Source of the DNA: Lepus europaeus | Lineage: Eukaryota; Chordata; Mammalia; Lagomorpha; Leporidae | Assembly: GCF_033115175.1 (NCBI RefSeq) | Contig: NC_084836.1 | Span: 69,239,297 to 69,303,296, forward strand | Length of the DNA: 64,000 nucleotides | Direction: 5' to 3' | Shown here: positions 7,841 through 54,204 of the stretch, piece after piece | Layout of the letters: each line of letters begins with the position of its first letter | Numbering within the stretch: position 1 is the first letter of the stretch | Position numbers and translations under genes: made by a program | The notes under the pieces: generated by a model | What the model saw: only the letters and a program-made list of their open reading frames with translations | Told to the model about the DNA's origin: nothing | Databases searched by the model: none

Positions 7841-8035
7841 CTACCGCTCCATCATGCTGAGCCATATCTGTTGCTGAGGGTCAGAGCGATACATAGCAAG
7901 CATAGCCTGTCGGACCACTAGGTTAGTGCGTTGCTGACTCCTGACTACTGCCAGGATGACCCTGCTGATTAGGAGAAAGGCAAGGAAGGTAATCAATAAA
8001 ACTATCAATAGGCAAAGAAACAGTCTCTTCATCAC
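7841..8035 (-). CDS. Small membrane protein frame in place of env
   Basis: A 64-codon frame begins 8 bases after the pol stop. It starts MMKRLF, has one strongly hydrophobic segment (about residues 5-27) and then a short basic/polar tail. It occupies the position of env. It could be the residual membrane anchor and cytoplasmic tail of a deleted env, or a chance frame. Nothing else env-like (surface domain, furin site, fusion peptide) is present between pol and the 3' LTR. Function unknown. Confidence 0.45.
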   Translation of the reverse strand: MMKRLFLCLLIVLLITFLAFLLISRVILAVVRSQQRTNLVVRQAMLAMYRSDPQQQIWLSMMER

Positions 8036-10641: not shown

Positions 10642-11043
10642 AAAACCCAGGCCTTGTCGGCCTTCGCTCCCTCGGGGTTCAAGAGAGTATCTTATTCCTT
10701 GTTCCTGTTTTCCCAGTCCTCCTCCTGCGTATCCCATCTTTCTCATCATTTCCCACCCCGGGGATTCATTAGTTAACTGCAAATGAAGTTGCTCTAAGAC
10801 ATCCCTCCCCCATAAAGTTACAGGGATGGCACACACATAAGGTTGTACTTTGCCTGTGGTGCCTTCTTGATCTTTCCAGTCTAGCACTTGCACGCTTTGG
10901 GATGGGGCAACAGTGGTGCCTAATCCTACCAAGGTGTTATCCCCTTCCTGGAGGGGCCATGAAGGAGGCCAGTCTTGTTCGGAGATAATACTAACATCTG
11001 CGCCCGTATCTAACAGCCCCTTGATTGCCTTTCCTTTGATAAT
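10636..11043 (-). pseudogene. pro: Provirus pro: retropepsin and G-patch (C-terminal part)
   Basis: The frame holds the aspartic protease active site LLDTGADVSIIS near 11005-10985. It continues through the flap/core region (VQPYVCAIPVTLWGRDVLEQ) to a glycine-rich G-patch (MGYAGGGLGK) typical of betaretroviral pro, and stops at 10636. Retropepsin cleaves Gag and Pol polyproteins. The N-terminal part of the same frame lies at 15949-16400, beyond the nested insertion. Codon phase on the two sides agrees, so the insertion did not otherwise disturb pro. Confidence 0.9.
10642..10648 (-). promoter_or_regulatory. Candidate pro-pol -1 frameshift site
   Basis: Minus-strand heptamer G GGT TTT in the pro frame fits X XXY YYZ and lies one codon before the pro stop (TAG 10638-10636). 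The downstream pol frame is exactly -1 and open from here. I saw no convincing pseudoknot downstream by eye. Confidence 0.6.
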
Positions 11044-11057
11044 AAGAGTCCATAGTG
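11044..11057. repeat. Target-site duplication of the nested insertion, left copy
   Basis: aagagtccatagtg, repeated exactly at 15949-15962. Confidence 0.92.
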
Positions 11058-11060
11058 TAT

Positions 11061-11092
<32 letters not shown>

Positions 11093-11130
11093 GGCCCCTG
11101 CGCAAGGATGACACGCAAATTCGTGAAGCG
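11058..11130 (+). pseudogene. RNU6: U6 snRNA fragment fused to L1
   Basis: Matches U6 nucleotides 23-95 (taaaattggaacgatacaga ... ttcgtgaagcg) with one difference near the start. The 5' stem-loop and the terminal oligo-T are missing and there is no upstream promoter, so it is not a gene. The L1 5' UTR begins directly after it. Fusion at the 5' end of an L1 insertion is the known signature of reverse-transcriptase template switching to U6 RNA. Confidence 0.95.
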
Positions 11131-11763
11131 AATGAGGCTTGAAACTCCGTGGGGAAAAGTTCACCAGGCTAACTAGGAGAGAGAGGAAAAAAAAAAGTGA
11201 CCGATACAGACACGAGTTTCTCTCTCTCCGCTCACCCCTCAAAGGCTAGCAAGACAAACAGCAGGCGCCATTTTGGACATACGTCATAAGCAGGGCAACC
11301 TCAGGTCTGCACCGGCCCTGAGCCTAGCAGAAAAACCTGGCTCTGGGGGTGTGGGGTGTGTGTGAAATAACAGGAGATTAGGATCTAACTTGGCAACCCA
11401 GTGGGAGACTGCAGGAGAATTGGAGCCCACACTGAGGGCAGCACAGATTCCTGTGTGGTCCTTGGGAAAGAGCTTCCGATCTCTGGCTCCTGTGGGTATA
11501 TCATTCACCTGCTAACTACCTCCAATTACGTTCAGCTGTGTGGAATTACTTCCCTTTTGAATCAAAAAAAGAAAGAGATTTACCACACCTAACCTGGGAG
11601 TGTCATCTTTGACACACCCTCAACCCTGAGGAACCAAACACAGTTCTCAGGCCACACTCATCTCAAGCCTCTAAGGCTCCACCGAAAGCAGACAGTCCAC
11701 TTAATATAGAGCCATAGTGTAACAAGAAAAAACACCACAGTGAAGAAACCAAATATCTCCAAC
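11131..11763 (+). promoter_or_regulatory. L1 5' UTR (promoter region) of the nested element
   Basis: Starts 'aatgaggcttgaaactccg'. The part at 11700-11763 matches the antisense L1 5' UTR end near position 113-170. It contains a 'gcgccattttgg' motif (11266-11277), similar to YY1-type sites of L1 promoters. Promoter activity is inferred from the family. Confidence 0.6.
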
Positions 11764-12801
11764 ATGCCAAACAACAAACGCAAAAACCGAGGTAACAAGA
11801 ACAAGGAAGACACTATGACGCTCCCAAATGAAAAAGACACCCCAATTCAAGATTATGAAGATGATGAGATAGAAGAAATGCAAGAAGCAGATCTCAAAAA
11901 ATTGATAAGAACATTAAGAAGTTCTCAAAAACAAATTCTTGAACTACAGAAATCCTTCATGGACAAGATAGAAAATCTTTCTCATGAAAATGAAATATTA
12001 AGGAGGAATCAAAATGAAATGAAACAACTAGTAGAACAAGAAACTGTGATAGTGACGAGAAATCATAATGAAATGAAGAGTTCAATAGATCAAATGACAA
12101 ACACATTAGAGAGCCTTAAAAACAGAATGGGCGAAGCAGAAGAGAGAATATCAGACTTAGAAGACAGAGAACAGGAAAGGAAACAGGCAAACCAAAGAAA
12201 AGAAGAGGAAATTAGAAATCTAAAAAATATTGTCAGGAATTTACAGGATACTATTAAAAAACCTAACATTCGGGTTCTAGGAGTTCCTGAAGGCATGGAA
12301 AGGGAGAAAGGATTAGAAGGCATTTTCAGTGAGATACTAGCAGAAAATTTCCCAGGTTTGGAGAAGGACAGAGGCATCTTAGTACAGGAAGCTTATAGAA
12401 CCCCTAATAAACATGATCAAAAGAGATCCTCACCACGACATGTTGTAATCAAACTCGCCACAGTGAAACATAAAGAAAAGATTCTAAAATGTGCAAGAGA
12501 GAAACGTCAGATTACTCTCAGGGGATCTCCAATTAGACTTACAGCTGACTTCTCATCAGAAACCCTACAAGCTAGAAGAGAATGGCGAGACATAGCCCAG
12601 GTACTAAGAGAGAAAAACTGCCAGCCCAGAATATTATATCCTGCAAAGCTCTCATTTGTGAATGAAGGTGAAATTAAGACTTTTCATAGCAAACAGAAAT
12701 TGAAAGAATTTGTAGCCACTCGTCCTGCCCTGCAAAAGATGCTTAAAGATGTGTTACACACAGAAACACAGAAACATGGTCATCAATATGAAAGAAGGTA
12801 A
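11764..12801 (+). CDS. L1 ORF1 protein, intact
   Basis: This is a 345-codon frame from ATG 11764 to TAA 12799-12801. The start was chosen because MPNNKRKNRGNKNKED is the L1 ORF1 N-terminus and matches the fragment at 1-112. A basic tail is followed by a long heptad-type coiled coil (about residues 38-160), an RRM-like domain starting NIRVLGVPEG (about 175-260), and the C-terminal domain with ARREWRDIAQVL and PRILYPAKLSF. There are no stops or frameshifts. ORF1p binds the element RNA as a trimer. Its preservation fits a recent insertion, but whether it is expressed from inside the provirus is unknown. No ORF2 follows. Confidence 0.93.
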   Translation: MPNNKRKNRGNKNKEDTMTLPNEKDTPIQDYEDDEIEEMQEADLKKLIRTLRSSQKQILELQKSFMDKIENLSHENEILRRNQNEMKQLVEQETVIVTRNHNEMKSSIDQMTNTLESLKNRMGEAEERISDLEDREQERKQANQRKEEEIRNLKNIVRNLQDTIKKPNIRVLGVPEGMEREKGLEGIFSEILAENFPGLEKDRGILVQEAYRTPNKHDQKRSSPRHVVIKLATVKHKEKILKCAREKRQITLRGSPIRLTADFSSETLQARREWRDIAQVLREKNCQPRILYPAKLSFVNEGEIKTFHSKQKLKEFVATRPALQKMLKDVLHTETQKHGHQYERR

Positions 12802-12837
12802 AGGAAGGAAACCTCACAGCAAAAGATCACAGGAAGC

Positions 12838-15500
12838 TCAATTTCTCTTTGACATAGAATTAAACTCTGATGCTCTGTTAAAGCAATGTGTTAAAGTAAT
12901 CTATTATGTTCTCTTGATGTCTGTTAAATTCTAATTGTTCAAAAACAGCTGAATTTTTATTAAGAGCTATGGGCTATTTAAATATGTGCTTATTTTCAAA
13001 GATTTGAATAATCACCTTGTAACAATAATCAGATTTGGTCTATGTTATGTCATGATTTTAAGGAATCTTATTTCAACCAGATATTTTGGATTTTGAGCCT
13101 TCTTGGCATTCTTGACAGGCATTCAAAAAATCAAAGTTCCAAACAATCTGGTCTCTAAAATTTCCAGTAAATCTTGGACTTTGGTTTTTCCAGTTTGGGC
13201 CCAACTGAAAAAATTGAAGGACCTATGTCTCTCATCTTATAGAGACACCAACTAATCAGGCTATTTGGATTATATTAGAAGTACTGTCAAGATGTGACGT
13301 GGTACCAAATTTTAAGTTTCTATAATGGAAAATGCTATTAATACAAATGTTTGAGAATTAAAAAGTCTAATGATCTTGTGTTACTAGACATGATAGTTAT
13401 CTTAATGAGAAAGCCCCAGAGGCCTAAAGGGTTAAATACTTGTAAAATCCTACAGGTGCTTTCAAAAATACTGTGAAGTAAGCAAGTGCCTCTTATTGGT
13501 TGATGAGTTTATAATTTTAAACATGGCAACTTAGTCTTTTGTCATCCACAGTTATATATGATTTGCTGCTCATAAAACTAAAGCGTTGTTGGTTCTGTGT
13601 TTAGCTGTCCTCCTATAGGTTCCTATGGACTTTTTCCAGCCACTTTTATTGTATTCAGTACTTTGGGATGGCTCTGTAAACAGATGAAGCCAATAATGTA
13701 TTAACAGTACCAACTGAGAGAAAGTATGGTTAACTGAGGTTACTAAAAACAAAAAGCAATTCAAATCAATTGGCAATGTACAAAAAGAGTTAAAGATTTT
13801 AAAAGCTATTATTAAAATTGCTATATTGGTCTAATATGCTATGTTATATGTGTGTACATATTGTATGTCCACATGGGAAAATTTTATTAAGAATTTTATT
13901 TTAATTGGCTTATAGATAAGATTGTCCATAAATTTAAGCTGCTAAAAATCAAAGGTACCTTTTAATTTGTATGACCTGAATCTCTGCATCATATGTTTTA
14001 TACTTGTTGGTAGAAAGAAACTAAAAACATTTTATATGGTTGTGCTTAAGTTTACTGGTTAAACAAACTACACCATGTTAGATATTTAAGAGGTGTTTCC
14101 AAATACATCATGATTCTTAAAATTTATAGAAGGCATTGGACCTTCTGGTAAATGTTTTCTTAAGTTGTTATCTAATGGTTGAAACTGTTTGCTAAGTATT
14201 CATGTGATATTGCTATTGTCAGCAAGCGATCTAGGACTTGCTCCCTCATTTCTCTATTCTAAGCCTAACTTGTTCTTTCATTTCTCTATTCTCCTCAAGG
14301 TAGGACACTAATTCTATTATGAAGGAATTTATAGGATGCACAATTTAATCTTTAGACCTTATAAAAGAGATGGCTAACATTTTTCTGCAATAGCATAGCC
14401 AAAATAAGAGCTTAAATTATAATCTCATAGCTAGATTTACTTCGCCATCAGCGAAGTAAACAGTAAGTAGAAAAAACTTCCCTTTCAGACCAAAGGGAAA
14501 GAAAGTTTTAAAGTGAGAATATAATTTTCCTCATGGGCATTGTCTACCTTAGAAAAACTACTACAGAACATGCCTGTGACTATAGACTTGTAGTTCAGGC
14601 TACCGAAGATTAGAGATGGGACTTGGGCACTCCCTTGACTTGCATCCTCTGGTCGGCTTTAACAAAAACCAGGAGGAAAAGAAAGCTAGGCATCAGAAGC
14701 AATGGGTGGCAGGCCTATTAATGGCTGATCTGTACAGTGATCTGCCCTCAAGGAGACCCAACAGGCCAGTCCACTGCAGTAGCTTTCAATGTGGTAAGTC
14801 TGGGCTTCAGCAGAAGTCAGCTTGTGAAGAGCCCTGGCAGCTCTGCCAAGAGTTGGATCACTGGAAATGAACCTGCCCTGGAGTCGAAGGATGCCCAGGT
14901 CAGAGCCACAGATCTTATTGGTTCTAAGCTGAAAAGCCCTTCACTCAGCCCAACTTCCAAAGTGACCACTGCAGCTGAGGGGATGGTCAAGTAGGGTCAG
15001 CAACATTGCAGGCAGAACTGTAAATTTCTTGTTAGAGTTGCCACCTGCCTTTACCTGGCCAGCTCTCCTCCCAGGCCAGCTAAGTAATGAAAGTCAACAG
15101 AGTGCCTTCCCCTAGGAGGTTCACACCTCCCTTAGGATATACCCCATGTGAAGAGATATAGGTCTGGGCCTCTTAACTTACAAGGCCTAAAGCCCACCAG
15201 ATTATTATCAAGCCCCTTCTATCAGGTTCTATTTGCCTCTCAATCAGAAAACTTAATTGTAGCTTAGACAGCCCCTTTCTTAGCTCCTCTAATAATGACT
15301 CTGTCCTTTGTTCTAGACCCTGTCTAGCGCACTTGGGCCTCATTCCTTCGTAATCATAACCTCTACTCTACCACCAATGGCTCTACTCCCAACCTGTGTG
15401 TACTGATGGTCCTCTTCCCCACTTAATGCTGTATAATTGTTCAAACCTGGTCAATGCCACTCTTAGGATCATTGGTTACTATCCTCACTCTGTCTTTTAT
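12838..15500 (+). other. Non-L1 body of the composite element
   Basis: From 12802 to about 12837 the sequence still matches the L1 inter-ORF region of the older L1 at 53310-53350; after that the match is lost and no ORF2-like reading frame appears in any frame. 12838-14600 is AT-rich and unrecognised. Around 14740-14990, translations read like a decayed retroviral nucleocapsid and the start of a protease (SFQCGKSG...C, LCQELDHWK, then SKLKSPSLSPTSKVTT). L1 homology returns near 15501 ('atgaccttgtctaaata'). Origin from an ERV1-type element is inference. Confidence 0.5.
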
Positions 15501-15948
15501 GACCTTGTCTAAATATGATCAGAGTCGGCAAACTTGGAAGGCTTCCATAGCCTTGGCAACTCATGACGACAGCCTAGGGTGGTTACTGGCACCATAAACT
15601 AGAGTGTCAATTTGTTGGGTCAACAACAGGAGTCACTGTGCACTTGCTCCTCATGTGGGATCTCTGTCCTTAATGTGCTGTACATTGTGATTTAATGCTA
15701 TAACTAGTACTCCAACAGTATGTTTCACTTTGTGTTTCTATGTGGGTGCAAACTGTTGAAATCTTTATACTAAATTGATCTTCTGTATATAAAGAGAATT
15801 GAAAATGAATCTTGATGTGAATGGAAGGGGAGAGGGAGCGGGAGAGGGGAGGGTTGTGGGTGGGAGGGAAGTTATGGGGGGGGGGAGCCATTGTAATCCA
15901 TAAGCTGTATACTGGAAATTTATATTCATTAAATAAATGTTAAAAAAA
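15501..15948 (+). repeat. L1 3' UTR tail and A-run
   Basis: Matches the antisense L1 tails at 34155-34590 and 58325-58771. It has the characteristic G-rich tract (about 15820-15888), an AATAAA near 15931 and terminal A's. Confidence 0.9.
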
Positions 15949-15962
15949 AAGAGTCCATAGTG
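15949..15962. repeat. Target-site duplication of the nested insertion, right copy
   Basis: aagagtccatagtg, identical to 11044-11057; the first two A's merge with the A-tail. Confidence 0.92.
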
Positions 15963-16268
15963 GGCGCTCGCCAAGAGTCATAGTGAGGGCTGCAAAATGC
16001 TTTCCTTGATTACCTCTAGTATCCTTTACAAGGCTTATTATTAGCAGCTGAGCAACGGGCTGCAATGGCAACAGTTGCACTATCCCCTTAGTAGATTGGA
16101 ACATTACTTTGAGCTGTGAACAAGGCAACTGAATAAGCCCCATTATAACCACTAATCCCTTTAATGAATTTGTAGCCCTTCCTATAGTAACGCCTAAACC
16201 GTGAATATCATCCATGGGCTCTCGAGGTTCCACATCTATTGCCTGGATTCCCATTTGAGGTGTTAATA

Positions 16269-53115: not shown

Positions 53116-54204
53116 ATCCAAGTCTGAAGAGAAATAACTGTAAAGCCAGAATATTGTAACTGCAAAGCTCTTATTTATAAATGAAAGCAAAATAAAGACC
53201 TTCCATAACAAAAGAAATTGAAACAATTTGTCATCACTTGTCCAGCCTTACAAAAGATGCTTAAGAATGTGCTACACACAGAAACACAGAAATGTAGTAA
53301 TTATGAAAGAATATGAAGGTGGAAAATCTCACAGTAAAAGTACAAAGGAAATCCAAAGTAAACAATAGGAATATTTATGGAAAAATGGTAGGGCCAAGTC
53401 ACTACTTATCATTAGTAACCTTGAAGATAAATGGCCTCAACTCTCCAGTTAAATGATACAGACTGACTGAATGGATTAAAAAACAAAACCCATCTATTTG
53501 CTGCCTACAAGAAATACATCTCACCAACAAAGATACCTACAGACTGAAAGTGAAAGGATGGAAAAAGATATTCCATGCTAACAGAAAACCAAAAAAGAGC
53601 TGATGTAGCCATTCTAATATCAGGCAAAATAAACTTTAACACAAAAACTGTTAAAAGAGACAAAGGGCACTCTGTAACAATTAAGGGATCAATTCAACAG
53701 GAAGATGTAACTATTATAAATGTATATATACCCAATTACCAGGCATTTATCTATTTAAAAGAAATGTAAAGGAACCTAAAGGGAGACATAGATTCCAACA
53801 CGACAGCAAATGAGGGACTTCAATACCTGACTTTCAGCAGTGGACAGATCAACCAGAAAATTGGCAAGCAAACAACAGAGCTAATCGACACTATAGACCA
53901 AATGGACCCAATTTATAGCTACAGAACTTTTCATACTACAGTTGCAGAATACACATTGTTCTCACCAGTACATGGAACTTTCTCTATGATAGACCACATG
54001 CTAGACCATAAAGCAAATCATGGCAAACTCAGAAAAATAGAAATCATACCATGCGTCATCTCTGACCACAATGGAATGAAGCTGGAAATCAACAACTCAA
54101 GAATCTCTAGAACATATGCAAACACATGGAGACTAGTCAACATGCTCCTGAATGAACAGTGAGTCATAGAAGAAATCAAAAGAGAAATAAAAAAAATTTC
54201 TGGG

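What the first reader, a model, noticed from the sequence alone, without database searches (positions are those of the whole stretch)
11058..15948. ORF1-only composite retrotransposon: L1 head and tail around a non-L1 body, no ORF2
One insertion with a perfect 14-bp duplication contains an L1 5' UTR, an intact ORF1, then 2.66 kb without any ORF2-like frame, then a standard L1 3' tail. The L1 match ends about 35 bases after ORF1 (compare 53310-53350) and returns near 15501. It resembles the logic of HAL1 or SVA-type composites: an RNA that keeps its own RNA-binding protein and an L1 3' end, and borrows reverse transcriptase in trans. Because it sits in a provirus whose LTRs differ at only 5 of 420 sites, it moved recently.
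Basis: partly seen in the sequence, partly recalled or inferred. Interest (0 to 1): 0.88.

Follow-up and report, generated by a model that had tools for sequence, protein, structure and literature searches.

The report
Abundant ORF1-only LINE-1 parasite family
A piece of jumping DNA found inside an old virus insertion belongs to a large family that kept only one of the two genes a normal LINE-1 needs, carries in place of the other a long stretch related to an older repeat, and most likely copies itself with the enzyme of ordinary LINE-1s.

Summary
Window 11058-15948 is one retroposed insertion between 14-bp target duplications: 73 nt of U6 snRNA, an L1-type 5' UTR, an intact ORF1, a 2,644-nt body without ORF2, an L1 3' tail and poly(A). 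It is not unique: a 30-mer across the ORF1/body junction occurs at 7,975 sites of the same genome with up to 3 mismatches, the reversed control at 0. Of 18 long copies, 17 share a 5' end that this copy lacks; U6 belongs to this insertion. The one intact-looking autonomous L1 examined has ORF1 (91.9% identical up to base 12841), then ORF2, and no body. About half of the body (1,247 of 2,644 bases) matches, in order, an older interspersed repeat. ORF1 is under purifying selection (observed/expected N/S 0.41; the other two frames 1.46 and 0.96). So this is a HAL1-type ("half-L1") element: it makes its own ORF1p and most likely borrows ORF2p from co-resident L1s. HAL1 is a known kind; the foreign body and the abundance make this a variant. 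No repeat library was available, and a family this abundant may already be catalogued. A function for the body is not shown.

The parts
11044..11057 (+). target-site duplication, 5' copy (AAGAGTCCATAGTG)
   Evidence: read; identical 14 bases at 15949-15962
11058..11130 (+). U6 snRNA fragment at the 5' end of this copy (truncated at both U6 ends)
   Evidence: Rfam RF00026, 86.2 bits, E 1.4e-20; 17 of 18 long copies continue into a shared L1-type 5' end instead, the 18th (L046) starts 119 nt beyond 11127
11131..11763 (+). L1-type 5' UTR, 5'-truncated by about 274 nt relative to full-length copies
   Evidence: full-length copies start near CAAGATGGCGGAATAGG
11764..12801 (+). intact ORF1 (345 aa plus stop), L1 ORF1p with RBD and CTD domains
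   Evidence: PF02994 and PF17490; 2ykp 222.6 bits; open full length
12802..12841 (+). remnant of the L1 ORF1-ORF2 spacer; L1 homology ends at 12841
   Evidence: alignment with L1 copy L054
12842..15485 (+). non-L1 body, 2,644 nt, no long ORF; 1,247 bases in four stretches between 12889 and 15207 match an older interspersed repeat ('X')
   Evidence: no match found to 13320-14262 or 15321-15485
14766..14888 (+). possible decayed retroviral nucleocapsid-like (zinc-knuckle) stretch inside the body
   Evidence: weak: only solved-structure hit is a Gag polyprotein, E 0.76; a frame of X hits NC/Gag among six hits of E 0.066-9.5; no Pfam hit
15486..15941 (+). L1 3' UTR tail with G-rich tract and A-rich end
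   Evidence: 71-94% identity to three L1 tails in the window, 80.5% to a tail beside copy L015 (boundary); 15651-15950 84.7% to the intact-looking L1's 3' UTR
15942..15949 (+). poly(A); its last A overlaps the duplication
15949..15962 (+). target-site duplication, 3' copy

Best explanation
This is one young copy of a large HAL1-type family. Shown: full-length elements have an L1-type 5' UTR, an ORF1 whose amino-acid changes are depleted, a 2.64-kb non-coding body related to an older repeat, and an L1 3' UTR with poly(A); most sampled copies have their own target duplications. Inferred: the RNA is made from the L1-type promoter, ORF1p coats the RNA that encoded it, ORF2p from co-resident L1s binds the L1-like tail and poly(A), and target-primed reverse transcription makes the copy. 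In this copy the enzyme stopped about 274 nt short of the end and continued on a U6 snRNA.
For: 7,975 junction sites at up to 3 mismatches, reversed control 0. Of 20 copies fetched (picked from the 29 other loci because their match ran to the 5' edge of the locus), 18 run from 11127 (+/-10) to the tail and 17 of these share one 5' end. TSD score >=14 in 12 of 20 against 1 of 380 swapped pairs. ORF1 open full length in 9 of 20 (this copy and 8 of 19 others). ORF1 changes in 21 aligned copies: 196 N, 145 S, expected N/S 3.27 from the body's spectrum, ratio 0.41, p 8.5e-15; +1 and +2 frames 1.46 and 0.96, two body pseudo-frames 1.42 and 1.08. Family majority against the L1 ORF1: 35 N, 45 S. L1 partners: 61 of the 150 scored RVT_1 hits have open frames of 1,274-1,315 aa (hand count; only one was looked at). 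That one has no body.
Against: No experiment shows trans use of ORF2p. The selection test rests on 21 copies chosen as best body matches with a 5' part. Two of its controls depart from 1 in the other direction (+1 frame p 0.006, one body frame p 0.022). Of 175 informative non-CpG sites 158 are homoplasic, so the internal-branch ratio (0.25) is weak; shared against singleton N/S (Fisher p 0.16) and internal against terminal N/S (p 0.12) are not significant. Part of the ORF1 constraint may predate loss of ORF2. The examined L1's 5' UTR (41-bp units) and upper 3' UTR differ from the element's, so its direct L1 parent was not found. Five of 20 copies gave no target duplication.
Confidence: 0.88

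Rival explanations
1. Passive passenger: the RNA is moved by L1 machinery like a processed pseudogene, and ORF1 is an irrelevant leftover.
For: 11 of 20 ORF1s are broken, as decay after insertion would give in any case; shared against singleton N/S does not differ significantly.
Against: ORF1 changes are depleted at amino-acid sites relative to the same copies' body (ratio 0.41, p 8.5e-15); nucleotide diversity at 0-fold sites 0.0184 (CI 0.0140-0.0232) against 0.0266 (0.0230-0.0301) and 0.0225 (0.0182-0.0270) in the two body parts (the 0-fold interval touches the first and overlaps the second).
Confidence: 0.08
2. An ordinary L1 family with the body in its 3' UTR, whose sampled copies have lost ORF2.
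For: ORF1 and tail are L1.
Against: The fetched copies that span it show the direct ORF1/body junction; that junction is found at 7,975 sites; the L1 examined has ORF2 and a body-free 3' UTR. Only one such L1 was examined.
Confidence: 0.02
3. A single transduction or later rearrangement at this locus.
For: The insertion carries a U6 fragment that the other copies lack.
Against: 7,975 junction sites; independent target duplications.
Confidence: 0.01

Closest known systems
HAL1 (half-L1) elements, Bao and Jurka 2010 (Gene 465:9-16; not held, not read; known here through passages of PMC5753468, PMC4859970, PMC4161310 and PMC3183009)
   Same: Non-autonomous L1 derivative that encodes only ORF1p; PMC5753468 says HAL1s arose independently several times in mammals; the table seen in PMC3183009 lists young HAL1 families in guinea pig and marmoset.
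   Different: Here 2.64 kb of foreign non-coding sequence lies between ORF1 and an L1 3' tail; full length about 5.1 kb. Whether published HAL1s have such a body I could not check. The same table lists no HAL1 among its three rabbit families under 1% divergent.
Autonomous L1 of the same genome (L054/L055)
   Same: ORF1 and spacer 91.9% identical up to 12841; 15651-15950 84.7% identical.
   Different: Has ORF2, no body; 5' UTR of 41-bp tandem units; lacks the element's 15486-15650.
SVA and other composite retroposons (recalled)
   Same: Composite, non-autonomous, L1-type insertion.
   Different: No tandem repeat, encodes ORF1p, has L1-type ends of its own.
U6/L1 chimeras (PMC4476161, passages read)
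   Same: U6 then a 5'-truncated L1-type sequence, same orientation, one TSD.
   Different: The U6 here stops about 12 nt before its 3' end (U6 end recalled); the paper says internal initiation had never been observed for U6/L1.

Membership tests
HAL1 (half-L1) | derived from L1 | tested here: met
   ORF1 and spacer 91.9% identical to an L1 with ORF2; L1 tail
HAL1 (half-L1) | encodes ORF1p | tested here: met
   selection
HAL1 (half-L1) | lacks ORF2 | tested here: met
   no ORF2-like frame; 18 of 20 fetched copies colinear with this one from 11127 to the tail, two of them with a shared internal deletion
HAL1 (half-L1) | multi-copy family with its own structure | tested here: met
HAL1 (half-L1) | mobilised in trans by L1 ORF2p | not testable with these tools
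   circumstantial only: TSDs, TT|AAAA-like sites by eye, intact-looking ORF2s
HAL1 (half-L1) | sequence match to a catalogued HAL1 consensus | not tested
   no repeat library available
SVA-type composite | VNTR and SINE-R, no protein (recalled) | tested here: not met
   no tandem repeat in 11000-16000; ORF1 present; SINE-R not searched
U6/L1 chimera | U6 and L1-type sequence, same orientation, inside one TSD | tested here: met
U6/L1 chimera | complete U6 3' end at the junction | tested here: not met
   U6-like letters stop at 11130, about 12 nt short (alignment; U6 3' end recalled)
Endogenous retrovirus origin of the body | recognisable gag/pol domains | tested here: inconclusive
   no Pfam hit; weak Gag/NC hits

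The most novel reading that the evidence does not exclude
The body is not filler: a stretch of an old, perhaps retroviral, repeat gives this intronless RNA something it needs once ORF2 is gone (export, stability or particle loading), making a composite parasite of ORF2p that rivals L1 itself. The only support is that 14427-15026 is the longest run of low diversity (four 150-nt bins at 0.62-0.71 of expectation; single bins elsewhere are as low); body2 against body1 gives p 0.01 for C/G sites but 0.18 for all sites, uncorrected.
Probability: 0.1. Interest if true: 0.8.

Novelty: new variant of a known kind. Interest (0 to 1): 0.5.

Why it matters
Whether L1 ORF1p acts preferentially on the RNA that encodes it is hard to separate from ORF2p in ordinary L1s. 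A family with no ORF2, an ORF1 under selection and thousands of junction sites beside many intact-looking L1s separates the two naturally. It is also a case of a composite retroposon, made of L1 ends and a piece related to an older repeat, that became a large family, and it lets one test what, if anything, a long non-coding insert does for such a parasite.

Tried and rejected
Unique transduction or rearrangement: rejected. L1 with the body in its 3' UTR: rejected for the one L1 examined. First candidate L1 (L051/L052) proved diverged and without the tail, and gave only an outgroup piece. A tail-only repeat starting at 15514, suggested by two window tails with that start: dropped, since an L1 tail beside L015 continues upstream to about 15486. 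Hidden coding in the body: no sign in four frames (N 43/S 10, 33/13, 32/4, 23/10). Strong body constraint: suggested by ORF1 synonymous changes at twice the body-based expectation, not upheld (4-fold diversity 0.0392, CI 0.0207-0.0586, against body 0.0266 and 0.0225). Retroviral domains by Pfam: none. RNA structure of the tail: no more than shuffles (77 of 100 fold at least as well). ORF1 mosaicism with L1: undecided. Not obtained: the L1 ORF1/ORF2 junction count, the body/tail junction count and the tail search did not complete.
Full report
What is there. The insertion 11058-15948 lies between identical 14-base duplications. It starts with 73 bases of U6 snRNA (Rfam, 86.2 bits), continues with an L1-type 5' UTR, an intact 345-aa ORF1 with both L1 ORF1p domains (222.6 bits to human ORF1p 2ykp), a 2,644-base body with no long frame, an L1 3' tail and poly(A).

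It is a family. The window's own genome (2.93 Gb, 649 contigs) was searchable. The body query had 5,609 first-look candidates, of which 40 were scored; 10, this copy included, were listed over the whole query. The junction query had 2,506 candidates, 40 scored: this copy and 39 others at 98-99%. From the 29 other loci I fetched 20 at greater length, namely those whose match ran to the 5' edge of the locus; the nine not chosen start inside the element, between 12329 and 13644. Of the 20, 18 match from window 11127 (within 10 bases) to the tail, L038 starts at 11207 and L045 at 12011; two of the 18 (L042, L046) share a deletion of 13062-13495. Of the 18, 17 share a 5' end about 274 bases beyond 11127 and L046 starts 119 beyond. 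The shared end reads CAAGATGGCGGAATAGG, which resembles the YY1 start of human L1 (recalled). A 30-base pattern across the ORF1/body junction with up to 3 mismatches is found 4,163 times forward and 3,812 times reverse, the reversed pattern never; these are pattern sites, not inspected copies. Target duplications of score 14 or more are found in 12 of 20 copies, against 1 of 380 pairs with swapped flanks; three more score 11-12 and five (L032, L036, L038, L045, L048) give none.

The U6 piece belongs to this insertion, since the 18 long copies have L1-type sequence there. It is best read as a template jump (or RNA joining) in the event that made this copy, of the U6/L1 kind described in PMC4476161 (passages read). 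The U6 match ends about 12 bases short of the U6 3' end (recalled).

Against an autonomous L1. A search for RVT_1 had 34,328 candidates, 150 scored; 61 of the 150 have open frames of 1,274-1,315 aa (hand count). By length these look like intact L1 ORF2s; only one was looked at, in two parts (L054, L055). Its ORF1 and spacer are 91.9% identical to 11751-12841 and the match stops there; ORF2 follows. Its 3' UTR has no body and matches only 15651-15950 of the tail at 84.7% (plus a second, partial stretch at 78%). Its 5' UTR is an array of 41-base units, unlike the element's. L1 tail homology elsewhere begins at about 15486.

The body. Beside one copy (L004/L053) lies an older sequence that matches the body in order over 12889-13006, 13017-13319, 14263-14410 and 14530-14921 at 61-69%; the part between 13320 and 14262 showed no match above shuffles. 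That sequence is itself repeated: the scored list, capped at 40, holds 39 other places at 74-85% out of 1,525 candidates. A second copy (L056) matches 14859-15207 (0 of 200 shuffles as high), and beyond that 15191-15330 only in a narrow test (0 of 200; 16 of 200 in a wider one), and not 15321-15485 or the tail. No ORF1 or L1 tail was detected next to these two copies. In sum 1,247 of the 2,644 body bases match the older repeat, in order; that the body was taken from it, and where the rest comes from, is inference or open. Frames in both resemble decayed nucleocapsid knuckles, but the hits are weak (E 0.76; NC and Gag chains at 0.066, 0.31 and 1.3 among six hits, the other three not retroviral) and Pfam finds nothing: a retroviral origin is a lead, not a result.

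Selection on ORF1. Among 20 ORF1s (this copy and 19 others; L045 left out as truncated) 9 are open full length, one of them 344 aa, and 11 are broken. With the mutation spectrum taken from the body of the same 21 copies (L045 included where present), ORF1 shows 196 nonsynonymous and 145 synonymous changes where N/S 3.27 is expected: ratio 0.41, p 8.5e-15. The +1 and +2 frames give 1.46 (p 0.006) and 0.96; two body pseudo-frames 1.42 (p 0.022) and 1.08. Diversity outside CpG is 0.0184 at 0-fold sites, 0.0392 at 4-fold sites (CI 0.0207-0.0586), 0.0266 and 0.0225 in the two body parts. Against the test: 158 of 175 informative sites are homoplasic, so branch placement is unreliable; shared against singleton changes (p 0.16) and internal against terminal ones (p 0.12) do not differ significantly. 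Between the family majority and the L1 there are 35 N and 45 S differences; the older L1 pieces place 7 N and 9 S on the family's side and 9 N and 9 S on the L1's, the remaining 46 being ambiguous or without outgroup. This supports ORF1p being used by the element, though part of the constraint may predate the loss of ORF2.

Age. Copies differ by about 2.7% outside CpG on average. I give no years.

Mechanism. Shown: structure, abundance of the junction, target duplications, ORF1 constraint, presence of long ORF2 frames. Inferred: own ORF1p in cis, ORF2p in trans, template jump to U6.

Known or new. PMC5753468 (passage) defines HAL1 as a non-autonomous L1 derivative that encodes only ORF1p and arose several times; the features testable here are met. 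The defining paper was not held. In the listings of my literature searches I saw no paper on a lagomorph HAL1 with a foreign body; they cover open-licence papers, show at most 20 each, and I read passages only. No repeat library was available, and a family this abundant may well be catalogued.

Noticed in passing
11058-11130: U6 snRNA fragment, truncated at both ends, fused to the 5' end of this copy; its junction is inside U6, not at the U6 3' end.
   Followed up: partly
L054:1-456: The 5' UTR of an intact-looking L1 of this genome is an array of 41-bp GC-rich units, 11.1 copies at 99%, unlike the ORF1-only family's 5' UTR.
   Followed up: no
L053:1-1305, L056, and the places listed: An older interspersed repeat with possible nucleocapsid-like remnants, related to about half of the body; two pairs of hits with identical scores on opposite strands of contig C44.
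   Followed up: partly
window 34592 and 58769: Two L1 tails in the window with unrelated upstream sequence start at the same base (equivalent to 15514), a possible recurrent truncation point.
   Followed up: partly
L031-L050, ORF1 and whole element: 158 of 175 informative sites conflict with one tree, and at 40 of the 80 sites that separate the family majority from the L1 some copies carry the L1 base: recombination, gene conversion or recurrent change.
   Followed up: partly
L042, L046: Two copies share a deletion of 13062-13495, suggesting a deleted subfamily.
   Followed up: no
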